Virus record (IMG/VR): IMGVR_UViG_3300020406_000804
Span: 26,462 to 90,461 of that record
Reading direction: 5' to 3' (one strand)
Length of the DNA: 64,000 bases
Source: a virus
Shown here in pieces: positions 810-44,689 of the stretch. Within the stretch, counting starts at the first letter, position 1. Each line of letters opens with the position of its first letter. The notes below the pieces were generated by a model. It had not been told where the DNA came from and searched no databases. It worked only from the letters and a program-made list of their open reading frames with translations. A program made the translations under genes and the position numbers.

Positions 810-1661
810 ATGTCAAAATGTTTAGTAACAGGTCACATGGGATTCATAGGATCTCAGCTGTTTAATAAATTAAAAACTTTAGGCCACGAAGTTTTAGGAA
901 TCGATTTAAAAGAAGGAAATGATATCCTAGAAGTTCTAAAAGATGGCTCAATAGAAGAAAAATATTTAGACTTTGCACCAGATTATATTTTTCATTTAGC
1001 ATGCATTCCTCGTGTTGCATACAGCGTGGAACAGCCTGTAGCAACAATGAAAAACAATGTTCTTGCTGGCAGCCTAACATTGAACTATGCAAAAGTTGTA
1101 GATGCAAAAAGAGTGATATATGCAGGCAGCTCTTCAGTTGTAGGAAACGGATCAGGTCCTGCATCACCATACGCACTTCAAAAGCTAGTAACAGAACAAG
1201 AATGTAAAATATATTCTCAATTATATGGTATAGACACAGTTACTTTAAGATATTTTAACGTTTATTCTGAAACAAAAATGGACGGTAACCCATACGCCAC
1301 CGCAGTAGCAAAATGGAGATATTGTTTAGAAAACAACACAAGCCCCTTCATTACAGGAGATGGTGAACAAAGAAGAGATATGGCATATTTAGAGGATGTG
1401 GTATCAGCGAACATCTTTGCTATGAACCATTCAGAAAAATTTTCAGGAGACTTTTTTGATATAGGTACCGGAGATAATATATCTTTAAATGAAATAAAAG
1501 AAATTATACTCAAGAACCATCCGGATGTTCAATTCGACTATATTGCTCCCCGTGAGGGGGACGTTCTATATACAAAAGCAAATATATCAAAAATACAAAA
1601 ACTAGGCTGGAACCCTTACATGAAAATTAAAGAAGGTATCGAATTGTGTTTTAAGAAGTAG
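810..1661 (+). CDS. NAD-dependent epimerase/dehydratase (extended SDR)
   Basis: Extended short-chain dehydrogenase of the nucleotide-sugar epimerase/dehydratase type. The N-terminus is a Rossmann strand-turn-helix with the GxxGxxG pattern (G8, G11, G14), followed by an acidic residue (D32) at the position that selects NAD over NADP. The catalytic YxxxK is Y121/K125, with the serines at 107-109 before it. The C-terminal half has the family's RYFNVYS and GDGEQRRD substrate-domain motifs. Its 283 residues are slightly short for UDP-glucose 4-epimerase (about 320-340) but normal for phage members. Together with the upstream deacetylase it suggests phage-directed sugar modification. The exact nucleotide-sugar substrate cannot be read from sequence. 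Confidence 0.88.
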   Translation: MSKCLVTGHMGFIGSQLFNKLKTLGHEVLGIDLKEGNDILEVLKDGSIEEKYLDFAPDYIFHLACIPRVAYSVEQPVATMKNNVLAGSLTLNYAKVVDAKRVIYAGSSSVVGNGSGPASPYALQKLVTEQECKIYSQLYGIDTVTLRYFNVYSETKMDGNPYATAVAKWRYCLENNTSPFITGDGEQRRDMAYLEDVVSANIFAMNHSEKFSGDFFDIGTGDNISLNEIKEIILKNHPDVQFDYIAPREGDVLYTKANISKIQKLGWNPYMKIKEGIELCFKK

Positions 1662-11200: not shown

Positions 11201-14200
11201 ATTTTCTCCATTTAATAGAAGTTTCGGGACTCCTGGGCCTATGCCCTCAGCAATGAAAAAGATCGCACTTGCAGTTTTTATTAGAGCCTGTATGTTAGAT
11301 TTTATATTAAAATCAGGAATGGCCATATCTGTTTGGTCTTTGACCCCAGTCGTACAGTCACCAATTATATTCAAGTATTTGATGAATCACGTTTTGGTTG
11401 AGCTAAATAGGAATAGGTTATTTAAAAATATTTGGGGACAAATTATACAAGAAATAGTACGCTCAAATAACCGAAATCAATCTTTAGAATCTTATCTGCA
11501 GAAAGAGCTTTTATCTTTTCCTGATCTTGTTAGGCAAGTGTTTCTTCCTGGACTAGGAGATAGAGACTACTACAACTGGCACGTCCATGGCATGACGGTC
11601 TCTCGACCTAAAAATAGAACTAATAATGCTACAAGATATAAATCTGCTCTTAATCTATGGGAGAACAGGGAAGGCGTCTTTAAGAGATTCCCAGTACCAT
11701 CAAAGGTCTATAGAAACACTGAACAAGTTCCAGAGATAGGAGGCAAAGCCTATGATGTTGGTTATTGGATGATGGAACCTTATAAAGAATCGGATGATAA
11801 TTTTTCAAAACTCTCACTAAATGCTACAAAGCTTCAAGATGGATCCGCGCCTCAACCGGCAAGAAGAATACTAAATAACGAGTTTATATACGAAGACTAC
11901 GTTAGGGTGTCTGGGCCGATCACGAAAAAAGCAAATACTGATGCCGTTAGTCCAATGATGAAATATCGACCACCAGCTCTAAGGTCTGTTGCCTCAACAT
12001 ACGAAAATTTGCCTGTGCTCAACTTTGATGATCCGACCGTTTTTGAGCCGTGGCACTATAGACATACGGAAGACCAAGGTATGAATTTTAGTGATGAGTT
12101 CGACGCCCCAACAGGTAATTTATTAGAGTCTTATTTTAGAAATCAGCCGGCAGACTCTACTTGGGACGAGGAAAAAAAGCAAAGATTATATGCTGTCATC
12201 CGGCCAAGTTATTATTATTATGATTTTGCTTTGTCGATTACGGCATATCTTGATTGTTACAGAAATTATATAAGTATTAATAGAGATAATCCAAATCGCC
12301 AACCTTTTTCTCAAAATTTGGAAATTGACGCGTTATTGAATTTTATTAATGGACAAGGAATAAATTTTCACGGAGTTAATACAGCCGAAAGTTTTGGATT
12401 TAATCAAATAGATCCAAACAATATAAATTATAGAGAGCTTCAAGCCATGCTTGGCGCAGGAATATTAATATACGGCCAACGTGTTCAAATTTATTGCGAT
12501 TTATTGGGTATTGATCTTTCGACCAAACTGCCTACTGCAGGCTCGTCTCAATATGGATTTAATTATGAAAATTTATCAAGCGAGGTTAAGCAAGCTGTAC
12601 TAGAACGTGCACGACCATTTTTAAATAAAAAATACGGCAATGAAGATTCCATAATATTTACAAATCCAACGTTTAATTCAATGATATCGTTCTCTGAGCC
12701 CGCCACCATTTACCCATGGTATGACGAGCGCTCCGGCCCCCGAGCAGCGAATTCGCACGTCGACAGTTCACTGACTACTTTTAATCTGCCATTCAACATC
12801 GAACGCCGCGCTAAGATGAGCCCATGGGATCCTGATCAAGATTATTCGGATGCCATCTCGGCATTCGCCGGCCTAAACTTGGGTGTTGAATCTATGACCG
12901 ATGAAGGTGGCTTTGTGATACCATTAAAAGTGTTCGATGAACATATGAGTTCCCTAAGAATGCACTATCAGAATAAAGACTCTTTATCTACATTCAATAA
13001 CCTAGTTGCAAGTTCAAATTTTTATTTAGGGATAAGATTAGTTCAGTTATTCTTTGACACAAATCCGAATAGTTTTTTTGATGTCTTTTTGGGTTCAAAT
13101 AACCTCAATAAGGTTGAAACATTATCTAAGGCTGAAAGAACATATTTTGTAACTTTTGAGGATGCTAGTCAGAACTATGCGCAATTCGGCCTTGCAATTC
13201 CAATTGTTTCATACGAAAAGCCACTGACACTTGATACCTGTGAGAGCGCTTTTGTGGGATCTCTTTATAGGCCCGGATCAGAAGATTTTGCCTTTATGAT
13301 GAGACAAATGGAAATAGAATTATCACAAACGCAAGAATATAAAGATTTTATGGACACTTTTTTCCCAATTAGAAGATTCATGGCTATAGCGACAGTCCAC
13401 TCGACATCGGCAATTGCAGGATTTAACGACCTTCCAGGTTTATTTGATAATGTAAAATCTTTAGCGTCTTTTATTGCTATGACAGCGATGACTCCAGAGT
13501 CAGATCGTCTAGGAGATGGCACACTTATGACTGGAATTATTGATCAGGTAGACTTTCAAAAGAAGCTGGGAGATGAGTTTCCTGGTGATCCTAATGATCC
13601 AAAGTGTTTTGAATTTCCAAATCTTACTAAAGATTTTTGGGATAACTTTTTCAAAGAGTTGGCAAATTTAGCAAAGTATTTTCCGTCTATATTGTTTAGA
13701 GGTTTAGCCAATAATTTAGACCCTGCCTACAAAGAAATGAGAGCACATTATTTAAATTGCGATATAAATCAACTAAACTGGAGAGGCTTAGGAGTTTCAA
13801 GTCCCCCAACTAGGCTAATTAACGGCTTAAACTTAGCCGGCGGTGATCACAGAACCAGATCTGGTAAGTATAACTCAATACTTTCGCAGCTTCCAATCGA
13901 CTTGTTTAAATCCTTGCTACCATTTCCTAGTCCTTTTTTACTTTCGTGTACAGTTTCTAAAACAATTTCTTATGCTTTTACCGGCTTTTTGCCTTTTATT
14001 GATTTATCCATGTACTTTAAGATACCTTGTCTTGATAGGGACATAAACTGGCTTACAAATGCAAAATATGATTTTGGAGCAAGAGGTAGATATGGGCACC
14101 CCGTAAGTCCTTTAACCGCGTTTGCACTATCAACATTACAACTTCCAGCCGACATAAACAAGAGAAATGTTAATTGCGAACCAGCAGAATCAATTTTATC

Positions 14201-32479: not shown

Positions 32480-35400
32480 ATGCCATTTAATTCGCGTGCC
32501 CTGAGTCAAATTGCCCAAACAGTATCCACAACAGTCACACCAGCAGTCACACCAGCTCTAGCTCTACCTGGCCGACAGCAAGCTGCTAGCAGAACTACAG
32601 GCAATACCAATATGGTTGCGCAAGTCGCTGCAGCTGTCGCGCAGATGCCAGCACAAAATGCAAATGCCAATAGTATGGTAATACAACCTCAGTCTGTTCC
32701 AAAAGCTAATACGTCTCCCTTGTCCACCTCGGCGAATTTAAACTTCGCGGGCCTAGGCCTGCCATTTGCTGGCCAGACTCCTACCACAACCGACGACAGT
32801 GAAACTGAAACTTCCGAACGCGTCAATGCCAGCGGCATGGCGGCTATCGCAGGTATCGCAGCTGCAGTCGGCACCCCGGAGCCGGATGTGGGTATTGTTG
32901 TGCAACCTCAACAAGCAGACACTTCCACCATCAGGCAGGTGGCAAACGCCGTTATACCACCTGCAGATAACAATCAATTTCAAATCCTTGTTGATGCCCA
33001 GCAGGATGAAGCTTCCAGTGGAAACAACGACGGCATAGCTGCGGTTCGCAATGCCGCCATTGGCCAACTCGGTCCGGACATGTCCGCCTTTGAGGTGCTG
33101 CCGGAGATGCCTGGCACCGCAGCCGAAAGCGCCGACGATGTAGCTCAACAATCTCAAAACGCCTCTTCTATCCTCGGTGCGGTTATTCCACCAGACTTCA
33201 GCACCCTCCAGGCTGCAGCTGCCGCGGCAGCGGTGGTCGAAGAAGCTGAAGCTGCTGACCCGCTGCTGGATCCCGATATCCTACTCAGAGTCAACCGGCC
33301 AGACACCTTGGTTCTTCCTGATGAGGAAGAGCAAGGAGATGGTGAACAGATCCAGTTCAACCAAGGTATGAACCAAATAAGTTTTCAAGGTTTCGACGCA
33401 GCGGTCGATGCTGATGAAGCCTTCAAGGCCCAAGATGGTGCTGACCAGCTGCTGAATCCCGATGCTTTACTACTCAATTTCGGCTCCGGTGAAGGAGAAG
33501 CCGATACCGGCGCCGGCAGCCCCGATGACCCTTTTTACGGAAGTCAATGGAGGGGCGGGACTTTGGAAGATCTTCCAGTGCTGGACGTCGGCGGTGGCGA
33601 AGGCACGGCAACTGGCGGAGATAAGGCGGCCATTACATCAGGCACTGGCTATGCCGCCACAGGCACTAACACAGCTGCTACCGGTGTTGATTGGGCTGAT
33701 GGCGACGGCCAAGTATCAACAGGTGCTACGGGTGCAACTGGCGCCACCGGCGCGCAAAATGCTGCAACATATCGTGCAGGCTTTTCAGATAGTTTTTGTG
33801 ATGATAGAGACCCATCAGAACAATATGTTTCAAACGCCGGTGCTTCAGCGCCATCAACTGGGCTATTAGGCGTGAACACAGCGCCACTACCATCTGATTT
33901 TATATTTGAAAGGACTTCAATAATTCCAAGATTGCGCCGCCAAGGCCCTGGTGGCACGGGCGCAACTGGCGCAACCGGCGCTGGCTCTGGAGGATTTGCC
34001 GCTTCTTTTGGAAGAAAAAATTATATGATCCCACAGCAAAATTATTATAATGATTTTATAGGCCCAAATTTTGATTTTATAGCAAGACTTAAAGAAGAGG
34101 CACAGGTGCAAAATTATAACTTTTCTTCAGAAGCTTCAAATTTAGTCGACGACCTCAGATATGTAGTTGGTGGGGTTTTCGACCATCTTGCGACAAGGGA
34201 CGGAAAGCCAGAAGTTACACGTCAGCATATGCAAAAGGTCACCGGAGCTTCAACGGGGGCGACCGGAGCAACCGGAGCAACCGGTTCAGAGCCAGAAGAT
34301 CCTTCGAGAGGCATTCACGATCAAGCCGCACGGCGAGGCATGTCGTTGGTTATTCAGGGTGCGGCGGAAAGCGCGCCTAGGATTACCGACACATCAGATA
34401 TTGATGAAGCGTTCTCTGGAGACCAAGGAGAGTATAGAACCACTGTAGTTTTAAATGCAGATCGTCTTGCCAGTTCAAAAATAAGACTGCCCCCCGCATC
34501 CTCTCTTTCAAGCAGGCACAGTGTAGTTTACGGCTTGAATGTTGAGGAAGCAATTAGCAACGTTCCAGAATATATTGCTTACCATATAGGGGAAAACAGA
34601 TTTAAGTTTGACCACACCTTTGTAGCACCAGTAGGGTATACAGGATATATGGCTAGTTTAATGAATAATGATATAGCAGAGGCACAAGTTAGATCTAACT
34701 TGGTTAGTCTTGCAACATATAATATTAGGCCCGAAAGCCAAACTCTTGCAGGCTTGCAAAATGGTGAAATTAGCAAAAAAAGTGTTTATAGACAATATGT
34801 TACAGATTACGGGATAGGAGATATTCGTCCCCAGGCGTTTCGATTGTCAAATGCTAATGGCGATCCTGATGCCTGTGTCCAAGATATAATACAAAAATTT
34901 CCTGCAAGAAAAGTTGTGGAAATGGACGAGATAAACAAAGATATACGTAATGCGATAGAGCACCCTAATATGTTGTCGGATCAGGTTGAGAATCTCGGTG
35001 ATGATTCGCCCGTGGCTCCGACGCCGATGATGAATAGGTGGGTGCATGCAAATGTTAATGTTCTTAACCAAATAAAGTTTAAAATGTCCCACAGTTCTTT
35101 GATCGCAGATGTGTTTTCCAAGCACTCCATGGACTTTCTTCTTTTTGAAATGATTGACCAGCTGACCCCTGCTAATTCTACACATTATACACAAATTTTA
35201 GATAACTCCTTAAACAACCCAGAATTAAATTCCTATACCCTCAGTGCCCAAGCAGACCTTGCAGCTGTAAACTTGCGTCCAAATGAATATCAGTGCCCGA
35301 TTCAAACAATGAGAAAAATGATAGAAAACATTCCTTACTTGAACCAACCTCAATATAATTTTGATATTGATACGAATAGTTATCCTCTGGGATTTGAACA

Positions 35401-37767: not shown

Positions 37768-37775
37768 TATAAATA
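37768..37775 (+). promoter_or_regulatory. T4-like late promoter box (TATAAATA)
   Basis: An exact match to the T4 late -10 element lies in the 53-nt gap before the gene starting at 37804, 28 nt upstream of its ATG. The gap is AT-rich, so chance matches are possible. The position directly upstream of a gene and the presence of a gp55-like sigma gene at 2543 support function. No -35 element is expected for this promoter class. Confidence 0.5.
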
Positions 37776-37803: not shown

Positions 37804-38469
37804 ATGTTAGTACCAGTTAAGGCAAAAAATTTTTACTATAAAGTGGGTAACATTCAAACAACGGTGCCCTGGTTTAGACCAGACCCCCAATATCTGAATT
37901 CTTGGAAAGAAGAGTTTTTCAGTCACAATGAAGTCACTCAGTTCAGATATTTTCTTCATGGATCTTCCCTCCAGAATGCAAGATGTTTTGATATAGATCT
38001 CATGATGGCTAATAAATACAGCAACCCAAAACAATTAGAAAGAGTCATGGAGATTGCACTCACTGCCGGCTTCAAAAACAGGCAATATATAGATTTACAT
38101 TGGGTTAGTCCCCCCGCCGATAGAATACTTGAAAAAAGCCCATGTAACCACTTTGAGATAGCCTGCAACAGTTATCTGCAAAATGGTTACTGTACTCTAA
38201 AATCTTGTGTCGACACCCATGCTATAGATAACATGGTTAAATACGGTAGAACAATTGTAAGAGGCAATAAAATTGTATTTAGCCATTTAAACGATAAATG
38301 GCATGACGCATCTAAAGATGCTATATTTGGAGGTACAGAATTGCTATATAAAAAATGCACCGTCATCGTACCCAGGATAATTAAAAAAATGCAAAATAAT
38401 TTTTATAAAAATCCAATAGTTGAAATAACTAAAGACACAAATTTTATGGAAATAATACAGTGGGCATAA
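37804..38469 (+). CDS. nucleotidyltransferase-fold protein with four conserved Cys (paralogue A)
   Basis: A 221-residue protein carrying the signature of the polymerase-beta-type nucleotidyltransferase superfamily, hG[GS]-x(8)-DhDh: G53-S54 then D63 and D65 in FLHGSSLQNARCFDIDLMM, with a candidate third catalytic acid D97 in a strand (YIDLHW). Before it is PWFRPDPQYLNSWKEE. After it are four cysteines, C114-x6-C121-x8-C130-x4-C135, which could bind zinc or an Fe-S cluster. All these features are kept in the next gene at the same spacing, so the two are tandem paralogues. It lies behind a TATAAATA box within the tail block, an odd place for an enzyme. The fold is inferred from motif only. Substrate unknown: nucleotide transfer to a protein, RNA or small molecule is possible. 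Confidence 0.6.
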   Translation: MLVPVKAKNFYYKVGNIQTTVPWFRPDPQYLNSWKEEFFSHNEVTQFRYFLHGSSLQNARCFDIDLMMANKYSNPKQLERVMEIALTAGFKNRQYIDLHWVSPPADRILEKSPCNHFEIACNSYLQNGYCTLKSCVDTHAIDNMVKYGRTIVRGNKIVFSHLNDKWHDASKDAIFGGTELLYKKCTVIVPRIIKKMQNNFYKNPIVEITKDTNFMEIIQWA

Positions 38470-39107
38470 ATTACTTTCATTACTGTAAGGGCCCTTGCGA
38501 AACTTCTATACCATGGCTCGCCCCTGATCCTATAAATTTGAACAACTGGAAAGAAGATTTATATTCAGAAATTGATGATTTTGGTAGCTATAAATTATGG
38601 CTCATGGGCGGCGCCATCGAAAGCCGTCAATCTTGGGATGTAGACATTCAAATTTCAGGGCCACTCAATGATAAAGATTTATTAGAAAATATAATGATAA
38701 CGGCAACTAATTTAGGGTTTAAGAATAGAACTCTTATAGACTGCTTATACACAGATTTGCCAGAAGAGTACTTATCGATGGGTAATCTCTGTAAGGGTAT
38801 GCAGATTGCTTGCGAAGAAACAGTTAGAACAGGGCAATGTACTGGAATGAACTGTGATAAAAATATAACCAAAGTTAAAAATACAATGGTAACTATATGC
38901 CGGGAAATATATAAAAATGGAGAAGAAATTTCTTGCTATAGAAGAGCAAAGCAGATACATAATAATTTATGGGCGACAGAAAATGTACCACACCCATGTC
39001 AATATTACAAGTGCGTGGAAAGGTACAGGAAACATAAAACTAATTTAACTTATCCGATTTTAATAAATCGAGATATTGATTTTAAAAATTATTTATCTTG
39101 GGCGTAA
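38460..39107 (+). CDS. nucleotidyltransferase-fold protein with four conserved Cys (paralogue B)
   Basis: A 215-residue paralogue of the gene before it. The signature is LWLMGGAIESRQSWDVDIQI with G50-G51, D60 and D62, and the candidate third acid is D94 (LIDCLY). The N-terminal IPWLAPDPINLNNWKED matches paralogue A, and the cysteines C111-x6-C118-x8-C127-x4-C132 have identical spacing. The GTG start at 38460 overlaps the end of paralogue A by 10 nt, suggesting coupling and equimolar expression, perhaps as a heterodimer. The C-terminal half differs more and has three more cysteines. Identity between the two is low outside the motifs, so the duplication is old. Fold from motif; function unknown. 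Confidence 0.6.
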   Translation: MGINYFHYCKGPCETSIPWLAPDPINLNNWKEDLYSEIDDFGSYKLWLMGGAIESRQSWDVDIQISGPLNDKDLLENIMITATNLGFKNRTLIDCLYTDLPEEYLSMGNLCKGMQIACEETVRTGQCTGMNCDKNITKVKNTMVTICREIYKNGEEISCYRRAKQIHNNLWATENVPHPCQYYKCVERYRKHKTNLTYPILINRDIDFKNYLSWA

Positions 39108-39115
39108 TATAAATA
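39108..39115 (+). promoter_or_regulatory. T4-like late promoter box (TATAAATA)
   Basis: An exact TATAAATA followed by C, matching the T4 late consensus TATAAATAC, lies right after the stop of the second nucleotidyltransferase-like gene (TAA 39105-39107) and 61 nt upstream of the ATG at 39177. A start about 7 nt downstream would give a leader of roughly 55 nt that contains the strong AAAGGAG ribosome-binding site. It could drive the structural genes 39177-44689. Confidence 0.55.
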
Positions 39116-39176: not shown

Positions 39177-40190
39177 ATGGCGTTTTTAGATAATTCAGGA
39201 GACATCCTGTTGGATGCAGTTTTAACTGACTTGGGAAGAAAAAGATTAGCAGAGGGGGTTTTCAATGTAACTCAGTTTGCTCTTGGTGATGAAGAAATAA
39301 ATTATGGCCTATACAACACTAGTGATACCCGCGGGTCTCTGTTTTATGACTTGGAGATAATGCAGACACCTATTCTTGAAGCATTTACAAGTAACGAGTC
39401 CCTTATGAAAACAAGGCTTCTTACTTTCTCAAGAACAGATCTGCTGTACATGCCAATCTTAAAGATTAACGACAAAGTAGAAGAAGTCAAGCCATCATCA
39501 AGTAATAATGGATTTTTGCTTTTGGCAGACCGAGACACCGTAAAAGCGAATCCAACAGCAACCGCCCGGGCAGAAGCTGGATTTATTCCTGGAATGTTTA
39601 GGGCAGAAGACAACGCGCGATTTAGCACAAAATGTATAAATGTTGATCAAGGTATAGATAGCACTGAAGATGGAAGAACTGTTTTACATGAAATGGATAG
39701 ATCTCTATACGAGACAGCCTATTTGATCAAAGTAGATAATCGTCTCTTAAAGCTACAGTTACCCCGCGGCCTAAAAAATTACAACTCTTTTAGTCCAATT
39801 TTATCTGAACAGTACCTTGACGATGATTACGTGGCAACATACTACATTGTTACTGGGCTGCCCGGATCTCCGATAGTGGAGCCTAGGAATGGCGCCTTTA
39901 GATCAAGAAACCTAATAAACGACAACGCAACAGAAAACACGACAGAGATAGAAGAAAACGAAATGTTTCAGGGGCCCCTAGGAAGAGTTTTACAATTTGT
40001 CCCAAGAGTTACAGATGAGGTTCAATTTTCTAATTCGTTTTTTACAAAATTGGGCTCAACCGGATCCAACCTAACATATCGAGGACAAACAATTTCAAGC
40101 TACAAGTTCATTGATACGAGTATCAGTGTTCAGGGTATGACTACCGGATATTCAATTGATATCCCAATTAGAATTATAAAAAAGAGTTAA
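39177..40190 (+). CDS. myovirus structural protein
   Basis: A 337-residue protein with a strong AAAGGAG RBS. Its N-terminus (MAFLDNSGDILLDAVLTDLG, then RLAEGVF and ALGDEEINYGLYN) is a conserved start seen in structural proteins of many marine T4-like phages. The same pattern (LT..GR..L..G.F....f..D(D/E)I.Y) begins the 517-residue protein at 27804, so the two share a module that probably docks to a common partner. The remainder is beta-rich with no known domain. It is the first gene after the 39108 promoter box and is followed by two fibre-like genes. Function beyond virion structure is unknown. Confidence 0.65.
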   Translation: MAFLDNSGDILLDAVLTDLGRKRLAEGVFNVTQFALGDEEINYGLYNTSDTRGSLFYDLEIMQTPILEAFTSNESLMKTRLLTFSRTDLLYMPILKINDKVEEVKPSSSNNGFLLLADRDTVKANPTATARAEAGFIPGMFRAEDNARFSTKCINVDQGIDSTEDGRTVLHEMDRSLYETAYLIKVDNRLLKLQLPRGLKNYNSFSPILSEQYLDDDYVATYYIVTGLPGSPIVEPRNGAFRSRNLINDNATENTTEIEENEMFQGPLGRVLQFVPRVTDEVQFSNSFFTKLGSTGSNLTYRGQTISSYKFIDTSISVQGMTTGYSIDIPIRIIKKS

Positions 40191-40217
40191 TTTTTAGTTA
40201 AAGACCAGGAGAAAAAA

Positions 40218-41654
40218 ATGAGTCAAATTTCTTATAAATCGCTAACACAAGATGACATAGACATTTCAAGAACCATATTGCATGAATCAGTGCCAATTAC
40301 TGGAACTTTATTGTCAGGAACATACGCTACATCGTCTACATCAGGAAGAGAATTAAATATTAAAACATACACGCACGGTATGTTTCAATCTATTTACGAC
40401 TACCCTCACTTATCTTCCTCTTCAAACCATTTGCTGGATGTCACAGTGGGCCTTTCGACTACACCCACCGCGTCACTTTCCGCATCCAACGTAAACCAGG
40501 TTTCAAAAAAAGTGAACATCTATAACCAAATGGCTCAAGTGCTAGCTGGATACACAACTGCTAGCACTATCAGAAGATTTGACAATGACGGAAACTTGAC
40601 TGATGGAGTTGGAAAAATAGATAATGCAATATTTTTAAATTTTTCTAGGCTATTAACAAAAGATGAAATTAAAAAGGGATCTTTCTCCATGGTCATCGGC
40701 GCTGGCAGCGCGTATGCTAGCCCGTATGGGTCAACAATAACAGTCTCAGACTCTACTGCAACAACAAATTTCAGAACAAACTCTCCGGCTGGTGAGTATG
40801 GCTTTCTAAAGAATACAGCTGCAGCAGCATCTGTAAATATTGTTTTCACAGGTGCACCGAGTACTGGTAACGCAATAACAATTCGTGCAATTAAAGAAGA
40901 TGCAACATTCGCATCCGCGTCCTTTTCAGCGCATGGCTCAAACAACACTGGTCTAAACTTTGACAAAAGCGGCACCACAGCTGCTACAGTTGCAAATTTA
41001 AAAGCTGCAATCGAGCGAAATACTGATATCAAAGATCTTGTCACAGTCAGCGCTGTGCAGTCAGGTACAACAATAACGGTGACACAGGTAAACAAAGGTG
41101 CTGGAGGCAACACTACGGTTACGAGCAACTTGGCCAACGTTTCAGTTGGCGGAGCGACAGCAGGACAAAGTGGCGTTTTTATCGGTGGAGTTTCTAATAT
41201 CACAACAGGCTTGATCTATTACCAAGCTGGTATTGCCGTTCTCACTTCCTCTGTTTTCGGAGACTCTACTCAAATAATGAACAATGCGTCATCATCTCAC
41301 GATGATGTTCTGACAAATGCTACTATCGATGACTTTGCAGACGGTCTTCGGAGAAGAGTGCAAAATGTAACTTTTAACAACACAACAGAATTAAATTCAT
41401 CGATTTATTTTTGCAGGCTAAAAGCAAATGAATTTAATTATAGTTCAAATCCAACTTATTTGTCAGAAAGTAAAATTGTGGTGAAGACAAATCCTGGAGT
41501 TGTGAATGAATACTTGACTCCTCCAATTTCATATGTGACAACTGTTGGTCTATATTCTGCTAACAATGAATTGCTAGCAGTTTCAAAATTGTCTGAACCT
41601 TTAAAGAAGACCCCAACGAATGAACTGACACTGAGGGTCAGACTGGATTACTGA
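40218..41654 (+). CDS. tail-fibre-like structural protein with shared beta module
   Basis: A 478-residue protein, RBS AGGAGA. Residues 1-200 and 330-478 form a framework whose C-terminal part (FNYSSNPTYLSES, then TTVGLYSANNELLAVSKL and PLKKT) is clearly related to the C-terminus of the 1010-residue protein that follows. Between them, residues about 201-325 are an Ala/Thr-rich beta module (SVNIVFTGAPSTGNAITIRA to ITVTQVNKGAGGN) also found in the proteins at 16600 and 21966. This module region has higher GC than the framework, consistent with insertion. The two paralogues look like one scaffold carrying different inserts, as expected for variable receptor-facing proteins. Location in the virion is inferred. 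Confidence 0.65.
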   Translation: MSQISYKSLTQDDIDISRTILHESVPITGTLLSGTYATSSTSGRELNIKTYTHGMFQSIYDYPHLSSSSNHLLDVTVGLSTTPTASLSASNVNQVSKKVNIYNQMAQVLAGYTTASTIRRFDNDGNLTDGVGKIDNAIFLNFSRLLTKDEIKKGSFSMVIGAGSAYASPYGSTITVSDSTATTNFRTNSPAGEYGFLKNTAAAASVNIVFTGAPSTGNAITIRAIKEDATFASASFSAHGSNNTGLNFDKSGTTAATVANLKAAIERNTDIKDLVTVSAVQSGTTITVTQVNKGAGGNTTVTSNLANVSVGGATAGQSGVFIGGVSNITTGLIYYQAGIAVLTSSVFGDSTQIMNNASSSHDDVLTNATIDDFADGLRRRVQNVTFNNTTELNSSIYFCRLKANEFNYSSNPTYLSESKIVVKTNPGVVNEYLTPPISYVTTVGLYSANNELLAVSKLSEPLKKTPTNELTLRVRLDY

Positions 41655-41656
41655 AA

Positions 41657-44600
41657 ATGGGTTTCAAAAAATTTGATTCTAAAGATTTGATTTACAATCA
41701 AATTATAACAAACCCTAAATTTAAATTTTTAATCCACACCGGTAGTGTATACTTACAAAACGAAAAATCTAAAGACGGAGATTTTTCTAATAAAATAAAG
41801 CATGTATCCCAAGGTCATGTAAATTTGCATGAGCTTAATATTAATAGACCAAGTGACAAGATAATATTTCCTTTTGTCCATAAGTCTAGTGAGCGCTTGG
41901 CGTTTAACGGCAGCTCTATAACTTCAATTAGTGATTTTGATAATACTGAAATTTCTGAACTTGGGGACCAGATAGCGGGTTCTTACCCCATGTCTGCTTC
42001 TGTAAGCAGGATTTTCATTCCAGCCGGATTTGAAATAAACGAATACGACGCTACTGGCCAAATCGCAAATCAAGCCCATGCTAACAAAAAATATATAAGA
42101 TCTTTAAGAAATGTGATAGAAACCCAAGCACATATAGGATATAATAATAAATACAATTCTCTGGGTACAGAGAAGGTCAATATGGTCTGCGTTCCAGGAA
42201 TTTTTTATGGCTCAAAAATAAATAGAGGCAGCGTAAAATTAAGCACTTATGTAACCGGTACTCTTGTAGCCACTGCTACCGATCAATATCAAGACGGCCG
42301 CTTGATAGAAACTTATAATATAACAAACGTATCAACAGTAACTGAAGAGACCAGTCAAGAGGTGGAAGTTTTAGATTCAGTAGATTTTACCAACGCTACT
42401 GGATCTGTTTCCTCGTCAGGTTCGCCCACGCAATATCGATATGATAATATAATTTTTGCCTCACAATCTGCAGTGACAAGTTTTTCAGATAGATTATTTA
42501 CGCATCCGAAACTCGGCCGCGCCGATGGAAATAATACGCTTCGAGAAGGTACTTTTGGCGGCGCCGCAGTGGTTAGCGGCAATATCATGGCTATAACACA
42601 CAAGGGAAATCTTACCAACACCCCCCAAGATCTTTATAGGGGTAATCAAGGCATATTCTTTTTTAAAAGTGGTTCTTCTGGTTGGCAATTTTCAAATTCC
42701 ATATTTCCCGACGCATCTATCTACCCCAAAACTCGACGAAGTGATAGTGAAGTTTCTAGCTATATGGTCGGCAAGTCTTTTGACTTTGAAGGCGACCTTG
42801 CGGTTCTCGGCGGCTTAGTTGATGGAGGCATGGGCGGAGAACATGATAATGATAAACTTTATATATATAGAACCGGAGCAGCTGGCTGGAACCTCGAAGC
42901 AACGCTGACAACAGCTTCTTTCGTGCCGGCTCAATGGCAATACGACGGTGATAATCCAATGAACAACTATTATCAACGCGACAATACACATGGCATCTTT
43001 AGTAGTTGTAAAATTTATAACAATAGGATTGTTGTGGGTGGTTTTGATTTTGTAAAACGCCGCGTAGGCGGTGGAGATTCGTTTGCCGGAGTAGCCACAT
43101 TTACCAGTTCTTCTGATGCCGGCTGGGCTTTTGAACAATTTTTAACCTCCAGTCACACTCACAGCGCCAATACAAACGTTGATGACGATCACCGCAAAGG
43201 AATCGGCACCAATGGCGCCGGCGGAAACCAAAACCTTGATATGCATGGCAATCGCATCATCGCTGGCGGCAGAGGTGGATATGACAATATCGTAAACATT
43301 GTTGACAATGGCAGAATTAGTGTGTGGCAATCTGGAAGTGAAGGTTGGGAAGAAGAGACTCAGATAGATTTATTTAGTGCAGGGTTGACCTCTTCAGTTC
43401 CTTTTGGAGAAGGCGCAAATGAGTATCATATCTCGAATCTTGACAATGGCTCAGGTCAGTGGTACGCGGGCACGCAAGAGTTCAAAATGTATACATTTTT
43501 TGGCTACTGGTCATGTGCAATTAGCGGTAGTTATATCGCAGCTTCAGCACTTGGCTATGGAAGTCCCAATAACAGATCATTTGTAAAAAATAGAATTTTT
43601 ATGTTTAGAAGCTCATCTGAATCAGGCTGGGACTTAGAAGCCAGTCTTAGATCCCCAAATCCATTTACTGGTGGTACCGGCTCTCGTGGGACTACTAGTT
43701 ATAAAGACAGTTTTGGATATAATTTAGCTTTCAACAACTCAGTCCCAGGTATGTTGGTTACGCGCGCACTCGATTACTCGCCCACTGCCAAGGATCCTTA
43801 CGATCCACATGGCCGCGTCCATATTTACAAATCCTCCTCGGCATCTGGATGGGCTCTTGCCCAAAATATTGATAACCCTTACCTTGGAACACCAGTAACT
43901 TCTAGAAATTTTTATAAAAAGTATGGCGAGCACCCCAACCCTCACGGTTCTCTTAGGCAAACAGATTCAATTGGATTTGACGGTACAAATATAGTTGTGC
44001 CCTTTAGCCAAATTATAGAGTCTGAAAATGATACTGGAACTACAGTAGAGCAATATCGATTCGGTGCGGTCCAGGTACTTCAAGGATCAGCATCCTACAG
44101 AACAGAAACGCAAACAACAGAGTCTACAAAAACAGTACATGTAGGCGACAATAAGCAAGTTGGTTTGGCAATTTATAACCAAGGTATTTTTATTTTAACA
44201 TCATCAGCCGGATTCGCAACGGGCAGCTTAGAGAAATATGAGTCTACTCTATTAACGACAAGCTCAGCTTGGGCAAACTTTGGTACAGGACTCCGGCAAG
44301 TTGGGGAACAGTTAAATCACGGCACCTGCCCAAATACTTCTTATACTATAGATTTTGAGGGCGTGAATAAAGTTCCAACACTAACTATGTATGCTTATTC
44401 TGAGATAGGAGAAAACAACTACTCTCACAACCCAACCTTTTTGACAGAATCCCGTATATCAAACACAAACTATAGTAAGGATTCATTTTTACAAAACTCA
44501 ATAGAAATAAAGAGCGTAAATAAATCAGAATACAGTGATTTTACCGAAGATCATAAAAATACGACTTACATTTCTAAGATTGGAATATATGACAAGTATA

Positions 44601-44689
44601 AAAATTTAATCGCCATTGCCTCTCTTGCAAATCCTGTCAAAAAGACTGAAAAGAGAGATTTTATGTTTAAAATAGGAATTGATTTTTAG
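41657..44689 (+). CDS. fibre-like protein with FG-GAP-type beta-propeller insert
   Basis: A 1010-residue protein starting three bases after its neighbour's stop. Residues about 308-742 contain five to seven repeats of the form 'hxGxxhhVGG....(G)xVxIYxxxxxGWxxExxL' (for example LAVLGGLVDGG then KLYIYRTGAAGWNLEATL; RIFMFRSSSESGWDLEASL; RVHIYKSSSASGWALAQN), the pattern of FG-GAP/integrin-alpha-like beta-propeller blades. The flanks match the 478-residue protein, most clearly residues 920-1010 (NNYSHNPTFLTES, ISKIGIYDKYKNLIAIASL). The propeller therefore sits where the neighbour has a different module. It is likely a host- or glycan-recognition device. Propeller assignment is by repeat pattern; blade count is approximate. 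Confidence 0.65.
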   Translation: MGFKKFDSKDLIYNQIITNPKFKFLIHTGSVYLQNEKSKDGDFSNKIKHVSQGHVNLHELNINRPSDKIIFPFVHKSSERLAFNGSSITSISDFDNTEISELGDQIAGSYPMSASVSRIFIPAGFEINEYDATGQIANQAHANKKYIRSLRNVIETQAHIGYNNKYNSLGTEKVNMVCVPGIFYGSKINRGSVKLSTYVTGTLVATATDQYQDGRLIETYNITNVSTVTEETSQEVEVLDSVDFTNATGSVSSSGSPTQYRYDNIIFASQSAVTSFSDRLFTHPKLGRADGNNTLREGTFGGAAVVSGNIMAITHKGNLTNTPQDLYRGNQGIFFFKSGSSGWQFSNSIFPDASIYPKTRRSDSEVSSYMVGKSFDFEGDLAVLGGLVDGGMGGEHDNDKLYIYRTGAAGWNLEATLTTASFVPAQWQYDGDNPMNNYYQRDNTHGIFSSCKIYNNRIVVGGFDFVKRRVGGGDSFAGVATFTSSSDAGWAFEQFLTSSHTHSANTNVDDDHRKGIGTNGAGGNQNLDMHGNRIIAGGRGGYDNIVNIVDNGRISVWQSGSEGWEEETQIDLFSAGLTSSVPFGEGANEYHISNLDNGSGQWYAGTQEFKMYTFFGYWSCAISGSYIAASALGYGSPNNRSFVKNRIFMFRSSSESGWDLEASLRSPNPFTGGTGSRGTTSYKDSFGYNLAFNNSVPGMLVTRALDYSPTAKDPYDPHGRVHIYKSSSASGWALAQNIDNPYLGTPVTSRNFYKKYGEHPNPHGSLRQTDSIGFDGTNIVVPFSQIIESENDTGTTVEQYRFGAVQVLQGSASYRTETQTTESTKTVHVGDNKQVGLAIYNQGIFILTSSAGFATGSLEKYESTLLTTSSAWANFGTGLRQVGEQLNHGTCPNTSYTIDFEGVNKVPTLTMYAYSEIGENNYSHNPTFLTESRISNTNYSKDSFLQNSIEIKSVNKSEYSDFTEDHKNTTYISKIGIYDKYKNLIAIASLANPVKKTEKRDFMFKIGIDF

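What the first reader, a model, noticed from the sequence alone, without database searches (positions are those of the whole stretch)
37804..39107. Tandem nucleotidyltransferase-like paralogues with four invariant cysteines inside a tail gene block
Two overlapping genes both carry hG[GS]-x8-DhDh (G53S54...D63,D65 and G50G51...D60,D62), a third strand acid (D97; D94), a shared PW..PDP..LN.WKE start, and four cysteines with identical spacing C-x6-C-x8-C-x4-C. The signature is that of polymerase-beta-fold nucleotidyltransferases; the Cys4 part suggests a metal site. Two enzymes made from their own late-type promoter, between baseplate and fibre genes, are unexplained. They could modify a virion or host protein or an RNA, act as a phage defence/anti-defence pair, or be catalytic virion cargo. 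This is my main candidate for an undescribed system.
Basis: partly seen in the sequence, partly recalled or inferred. Interest (0 to 1): 0.8.

Follow-up and report, generated by a model that had tools for sequence, protein, structure and literature searches.

The report
Duplicated phage nucleotidyltransferase with cysteine insert
Two neighbouring genes of an uncultivated T4-like phage encode sister enzymes of the kind that transfers a nucleotide onto another molecule; they belong to a widespread but unnamed phage family whose catalytic acids are always kept, while their four-cysteine insert was found in no other member, and what they modify is not known.

Summary
A (37804-38469) and B (38460-39107) are full-length paralogues (29% identity, E 8e-27) with hG[GS]-x8-DhDh, a third strand acid and four aligned cysteines. 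The NTase reading holds. AlphaFold2 gives the expected core, and of the 50 listed PDB matches 44 (B) and 47 (A) are polymerase-beta-type NTases, though each E-value is only marginal (at best 5e-3 and 8e-3). The pair belongs to a phage family absent as such from Pfam, PHROGs, INPHARED, PLSDB and (two pattern scans) GTDB genomes, but present in about 50 IMG/VR loci (31 non-redundant members, about 15 gene contexts). A profile built without the pair finds B at 102 and A at 84 bits; the next window ORF scores 4. Seven of 25 members touch Pfam NTP_transf_2, one above its cut-off. The three acids are invariant in 31 of 31; the Cys4 array occurs in A and B only. The tandem pair is also unique: the other 22 records searched have one copy. 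Late-type TATAAATA boxes bracket the pair. About half of the gene contexts place the gene after a tail, fibre or collagen-like gene. Substrate unknown; best guess is a virion or host-surface component. New variant of a known superfamily, not a two-gene system.

The parts
37768..37775 (+). TATAAATA, T4-late-type promoter box, 36 bases before the start of gene A
37804..38469 (+). gene A: 221-aa nucleotidyltransferase-family protein
   Evidence: found at 83.6 bits by a family profile built without it; AF2 pLDDT 68, residues 11-100 mostly above 78
37960..37998 (+). A: catalytic motif G53-S54-x8-D63-x-D65
38092..38094 (+). A: third catalytic acid D97
   Evidence: strand 95-101 in the model
38143..38208 (+). 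A: four-cysteine insert C114-C121-C130-C135
   Evidence: absent from all 29 other non-redundant members; low-confidence region of the model
38460..39107 (+). gene B (GTG start): 215-aa nucleotidyltransferase-family protein
   Evidence: found at 101.7 bits by a family profile built without it; AF2 pLDDT 80, pTM 0.80
38607..38645 (+). B: catalytic motif G50-G51-x8-D60-x-D62
38739..38741 (+). B: third catalytic acid D94
   Evidence: strand 92-98 in the model
38790..38855 (+). B: four-cysteine insert C111-C118-C127-C132
   Evidence: model pLDDT about 57-69 over most of it
39108..39115 (+). TATAAATA box that appears to open the next transcription unit (tail gene 39177-40190)

Best explanation
A and B are two probably active, single-domain polymerase-beta-fold nucleotidyltransferases. 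They arose by tandem duplication of one member of a widespread, unnamed phage NTase family, and the pair (or its single ancestor) gained a cysteine-rich insert that may hold a metal. Shown here: the family, the predicted core fold, the invariant acids, the duplication and the restriction of the cysteines to this pair. Inferred: with metal ions held by the three acids they transfer an NMP from an NTP to an acceptor hydroxyl or phosphate, late in infection. The most likely acceptor is a virion fibre component or a host-surface molecule of the host-recognition module, with the two paralogues specialised for different acceptors; this last step is a guess.
For: Core topology H24-37, E45-49 ending in G50-G51, E60-66 with D60/D62, H72-88, E92-98 with D94, most of it above 90 pLDDT. 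Of the 50 listed PDB matches, 44 (B) and 47 (A) are Pol-beta NTases: TdT, Pol mu/beta, AAD(9), ANT(3'')(9), MNT, cGAS, DncV. A full-length viral structural relative, A0A516ML51, E 1.7e-7, probability 1.00. NTP_transf_2 is matched by 7 of 25 family members, L042 at 27.0 bits against a cut-off of 21. Three acids 31/31. Family membership of A and B is unambiguous. A and B are sisters (92/80), the only tandem case in 23 records. Late-type boxes bracket the pair. In 8-9 of about 15 gene contexts the gene lies directly after a long tail or fibre gene or a collagen-like gene; in others it lies near glycosyltransferases or 2OG-Fe(II) oxygenases, and in L015 next to an MptE-like gene. In T4-like pelagimyophages the equivalent host-recognition cluster carries tail fibres and glycosyltransferases (PMC7029224).
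Against: Single Foldseek E-values are marginal (at best 5e-3 and 8e-3), and neither A nor B matches NTP_transf_2 or a PDB chain by sequence on its own. In several contexts (L012, L021, L025, L045) the gene is not in a tail block but near clamp-loader, recombination or unassigned genes, so a virion substrate is not a family-wide necessity. The features of upstream fibre genes were only modestly more common than in other neighbours, and lineages were not independent. No activity, metal or virion data exist.
Confidence: 0.55

Rival explanations
1. RNA-directed NTases: they add or restore nucleotides at RNA (tRNA) 3' ends, as a repair enzyme or as a translation-blocking toxin.
For: Poly(A) polymerase and mitochondrial poly(A) polymerase models appear among weak matches. 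Phages do use Pol-beta NTases (RlaP, CCA-adding) for RNA repair (PMC7824862), and a 182-aa NTase-like protein of Klebsiella phage fHe-Kpn01, Gp22, is toxic in E. coli (PMC7291057).
Against: No match to RlaP, CCA-adding or AbiEii models. No T4-type RNA ligase found in the 90-kb record, although that search had no positive control. Only one tRNA plus a tmRNA in the upstream 26 kb, none in the window. No C-terminal helical RNA-binding domain in the model; no RNA-repair neighbours seen.
Confidence: 0.2
2. MNT-like AMPylating antitoxin or defence/counter-defence proteins.
For: MNT antitoxins are among the best structural matches of A (8xeo_B, probability 0.95; 8xeh_E, 0.94).
Against: No small partner gene is shared next to the family across about 15 gene contexts; the proteins are about twice the size of MNT; the pair is in a late tail block. 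No PADLOC search was run.
Confidence: 0.1
3. Non-catalytic structural or assembly role (for example a fibre chaperone) that reuses the NTase fold.
For: Tight placement directly after long tail or fibre genes (gaps of 2-18 bases in several lineages), as for T4 gene 38 after gene 37 (own knowledge).
Against: The three acids are invariant in 31/31 members while almost every other column varies, which a chaperone role would not require.
Confidence: 0.1
4. Small-molecule nucleotidyltransferases, like aminoglycoside/spectinomycin adenylyltransferases.
For: AAD(9), ANT(3'')(9) and AadA are among the top PDB matches.
Against: The similarity is confined to about 80-120 alignment columns (TM-scores near 0.25); the C-terminal part is predicted beta-rich, not the ANT helical domain; a late tail location makes little sense for this.
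Confidence: 0.05

Closest known systems
Pfam NTP_transf_2 (PF01909), the general Pol-beta nucleotidyltransferase domain
   Same: hG[GS]...DhDh...hD motif and core topology; 7 of 25 family members match, one above the cut-off
   Different: A and B themselves do not match; the family has its own N-terminal F-x-Y-K-x-G-x-[IV]-E-T-x2-PW-x2-P segment and its own C-terminal beta-rich part
MNT antitoxin of HEPN-MNT modules (PDB 8xeh, 8xeo, 7ae9)
   Same: minimal NTase core; among the best structural matches of A
   Different: MNT is about 100-140 aa and has a HEPN partner gene; none seen here
Spectinomycin/streptomycin adenylyltransferases AAD(9), ANT(3'')(9), AadA (PDB 6xz0, 6sxj, 7uy4, 5lpa)
   Same: NTase core, matched over about 80-120 alignment columns
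   Different: only the core aligns; TM-scores about 0.25 of the whole protein
Gp22 of Klebsiella phage fHe-Kpn01 (PMC7291057)
   Same: small (182 aa) phage protein with hG[GS], [DE]h[DE]h and h[DE]h patterns, predicted NTase
   Different: the authors place it near CCA-adding enzymes with other motif spacing; INPHARED tblastn with members of this family and a consensus found no convincing match in any named phage
A0A516ML51 (BFVD, unnamed in the tables at hand)
   Same: full-length structural match to B, 192 aa, E 1.7e-7, TM 0.58/0.64
   Different: 20% identity; organism and function not known here

Membership tests
Polymerase-beta nucleotidyltransferase superfamily | hG[GS] turn followed by DhDh on the next strand | tested here: met
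   A G53S54/D63,D65; B G50G51/D60,D62; both Asp in 31/31 members, first Gly in 30/31
Polymerase-beta nucleotidyltransferase superfamily | third acid on a further core strand | tested here: met
   A D97, B D94; 31/31; strand in both models
Polymerase-beta nucleotidyltransferase superfamily | NTase core fold | tested here: met
   predicted only: core topology and 44/50 and 47/50 NTases among listed PDB matches, marginal E-values
Polymerase-beta nucleotidyltransferase superfamily | metal-dependent NMP transfer | not testable with these tools
   needs enzyme assays
Pfam NTP_transf_2 (PF01909) | score above the curated cut-off | tested here: not met
   A and B: no match; relative L042: 27.0 bits against 21
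Unnamed phage NTase family (L003...L065) | score with a profile built without A and B | tested here: met
   B 101.7 bits, A 83.6 bits, next window ORF 3.8 bits
Zinc-binding Cys4 domain | Cys4 array conserved in relatives | tested here: not met
   present in A and B only, 2 of 31 members; it is not a feature of the family
Zinc-binding Cys4 domain | bound metal and clustered cysteines | not testable with these tools
   low-confidence part of both models; coordinates not available here
HEPN-MNT toxin-antitoxin | adjacent HEPN partner gene | tested here: not met
   neighbours of A/B are tail-type genes; no shared small partner across relatives' contexts; HEPN models were searched only for the neighbours listed
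RlaP / CCA-adding RNA-repair NTases | match to the family models | tested here: not met
   no such Pfam match for A, B or relatives
RlaP / CCA-adding RNA-repair NTases | RNA ligase in the same genome | tested here: inconclusive
   PF09511 not found, but the control found nothing either and the record may be a fragment

The most novel reading that the evidence does not exclude
A widespread phage enzyme family nucleotidylates fibre proteins or host-surface glycans as part of host recognition or superinfection exclusion; in this phage it was doubled and given a metal-binding Cys4 module so that two different acceptors are modified.
Probability: 0.2. Interest if true: 0.75.

Novelty: new variant of a known kind. 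Interest (0 to 1): 0.42.

Why it matters
The family is present in diverse uncultivated phages, including T4-like and jumbo-sized ones, keeps its three catalytic acids without exception, and has no Pfam or PHROG model of its own. If active, it would add a nucleotide-transfer step to late phage biology, possibly on virions or host surfaces, which to my knowledge no phage tail module is known to carry. The pair here offers a natural test of how a duplicated NTase gains a new (perhaps metal-dependent) acceptor.

Tried and rejected
Direct searches with A or B: Pfam, PHROGs, PDB sequences and INPHARED tblastn gave only chance-level matches. Single-protein pattern scans were too strict. Profile search of PDB sequences stayed at chance level, with MNT and poly(A) polymerase only at E about 1.5. 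A collagen-like substrate for the window pair is not supported: the upstream protein has only three short GATGATG linkers and no Pfam Collagen match. A 2OG-Fe(II) oxygenase (prolyl-hydroxylase-type) partner is frequent next to the L045-L064 group but was not found in the window's own record. Literature: no paper found on phage NTases in tail modules.

Full report
Observation. Every sequence motif described is present, and the proteins are full-length paralogues: 29% identity, E 8e-27. The box TATAAATA stands 36 bases before A and again just behind B. Such boxes are only mildly above chance in the window as a whole but concentrate in intergenic DNA (3 of 7 plus-strand hits in 3.7% of the sequence). 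The pair is therefore best read as its own late transcription unit.

The phage. The window is part of a 90,461-base IMG/VR record. It is T4-like: gp25/gp6-type baseplate wedge genes, a weak late sigma factor match, T4-type terminase, portal gp20 and prohead protease. RuvC-like, primase and SbcCD-type genes follow the tail block. The long tail-type genes around the pair have no PHROG match.

Relatives. A and B alone match nothing. Iterated alignment scans of IMG/VR gave two, then seven, then fifty loci. After removal of near-copies 31 proteins remain, including A and B. A profile built from the other 29 finds B at 101.7 and A at 83.6 bits among 209 window ORFs; the third best scores 3.8 bits. 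The family was not found in INPHARED, PLSDB or GTDB genomes by the searches possible here. BFVD holds one full-length structural relative, A0A516ML51.

Fold and catalysis. AlphaFold2 with the family alignment gives B a pLDDT of 80 with a core mostly above 90, and A 68 with a good core. The core has the NTase order helix, strand, Gly-Gly/Gly-Ser turn, strand with two Asp, helix, strand with the third Asp. Foldseek against the PDB returns almost only Pol-beta-type enzymes for both models. Single E-values are marginal (at best 5e-3 and 8e-3) because mostly the core aligns, so the weight lies in the agreement of many matches. Independent support comes from Pfam: NTP_transf_2 is matched by 7 of 25 members, one above its cut-off, and it is the only family matched by more than one. 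The three acids are the same in 31 of 31 members at about 20-30% identity. I take the NTase assignment as established at the level of prediction, and catalytic activity as likely but unshown.

Cysteines and duplication. None of the 29 other members has the Cys4 array, and most have none to two cysteines. The insert lies between the third acid and the C-terminal part, and both models are of low confidence there. A tree puts A and B together (92/80). Of 23 records searched, only this one has two copies. The pair is thus a local duplication of a normally single gene, and the cysteines mark this lineage. A metal site is possible but untested. This removes the idea that two enzymes plus Cys4 define a conserved system.

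Context across phages. Sorting loci by neighbours gives about 15 different contexts. In eight or nine the gene follows directly on a long tail or fibre gene (or a collagen-like gene, L015), mostly with gaps of a few bases. Five of these share downstream tail-protein relatives and, in several, RuvC-like and primase genes, so the site is probably ancestral in that group. In the other contexts it is near clamp-loader, recombination or unassigned genes. Sugar- and protein-modifying genes occur nearby in some: glycosyltransferase family 25 (L033), 2OG-Fe(II) oxygenases (L046 group) and an MptE-like gene (L015). In T4-like pelagimyophages the variable host-recognition cluster with tail fibres also carries glycosyltransferases, thought to alter surfaces and prevent coinfection (PMC7029224).

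Mechanism. Best supported: metal-dependent transfer of an NMP from an NTP, late in infection. My best guess for the acceptor is a virion fibre component or host-surface molecule; this rests on neighbourhood alone. An RNA substrate is the main rival. It is weakened by the lack of RNA-repair models and neighbours, but the RNA-ligase search lacked a positive control and the record may be a fragment.

Verdict. A true and moderately interesting find: a new, widespread, uncharacterised phage family within a known superfamily, with a lineage-specific duplication and cysteine insert. It is not an undescribed multi-gene system on present evidence.

Noticed in passing
L005:4125-4429 (own record, upstream of the window): A complete tmRNA gene in the phage record (tag ANNDIEVEDFALAA; Rfam RF00023, 125 bits) together with a single tRNA-Met at 11478-11554.
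   Followed up: partly
L046:7135-11671 and relatives L045, L050, L057-L064: Next to the NTase gene stand a protein with intein/Hint domains (754 aa in L046) and up to four tandem paralogues, one of which matches the 2OG-Fe(II) oxygenase (prolyl-hydroxylase-type) model.
   Followed up: partly
L014:6354-10536: Four tandem paralogues with a repeated F-C-x2-PW-x-H and PCC pattern, reminiscent of SPASM-type radical SAM proteins, lie downstream of the NTase gene; not tested with a model.
   Followed up: no
window 39177-44689; also L003, L036, L038, L039: Tail-type proteins that share sequence (cluster 24), some with a C-terminal V-T-T-V-G-L-Y...L-A-V-x-K motif and without a PHROG name, recur beside the NTase gene, often followed by RuvC-like and primase genes.
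   Followed up: partly
window 33722-34290: Three short GATGATG linkers, coded by varied codons, inside the 1756-aa protein upstream of the pair.
   Followed up: partly
window 810-1661: A nucleotide-sugar epimerase (phrog_540, E 2e-58) before the baseplate genes.
   Followed up: no
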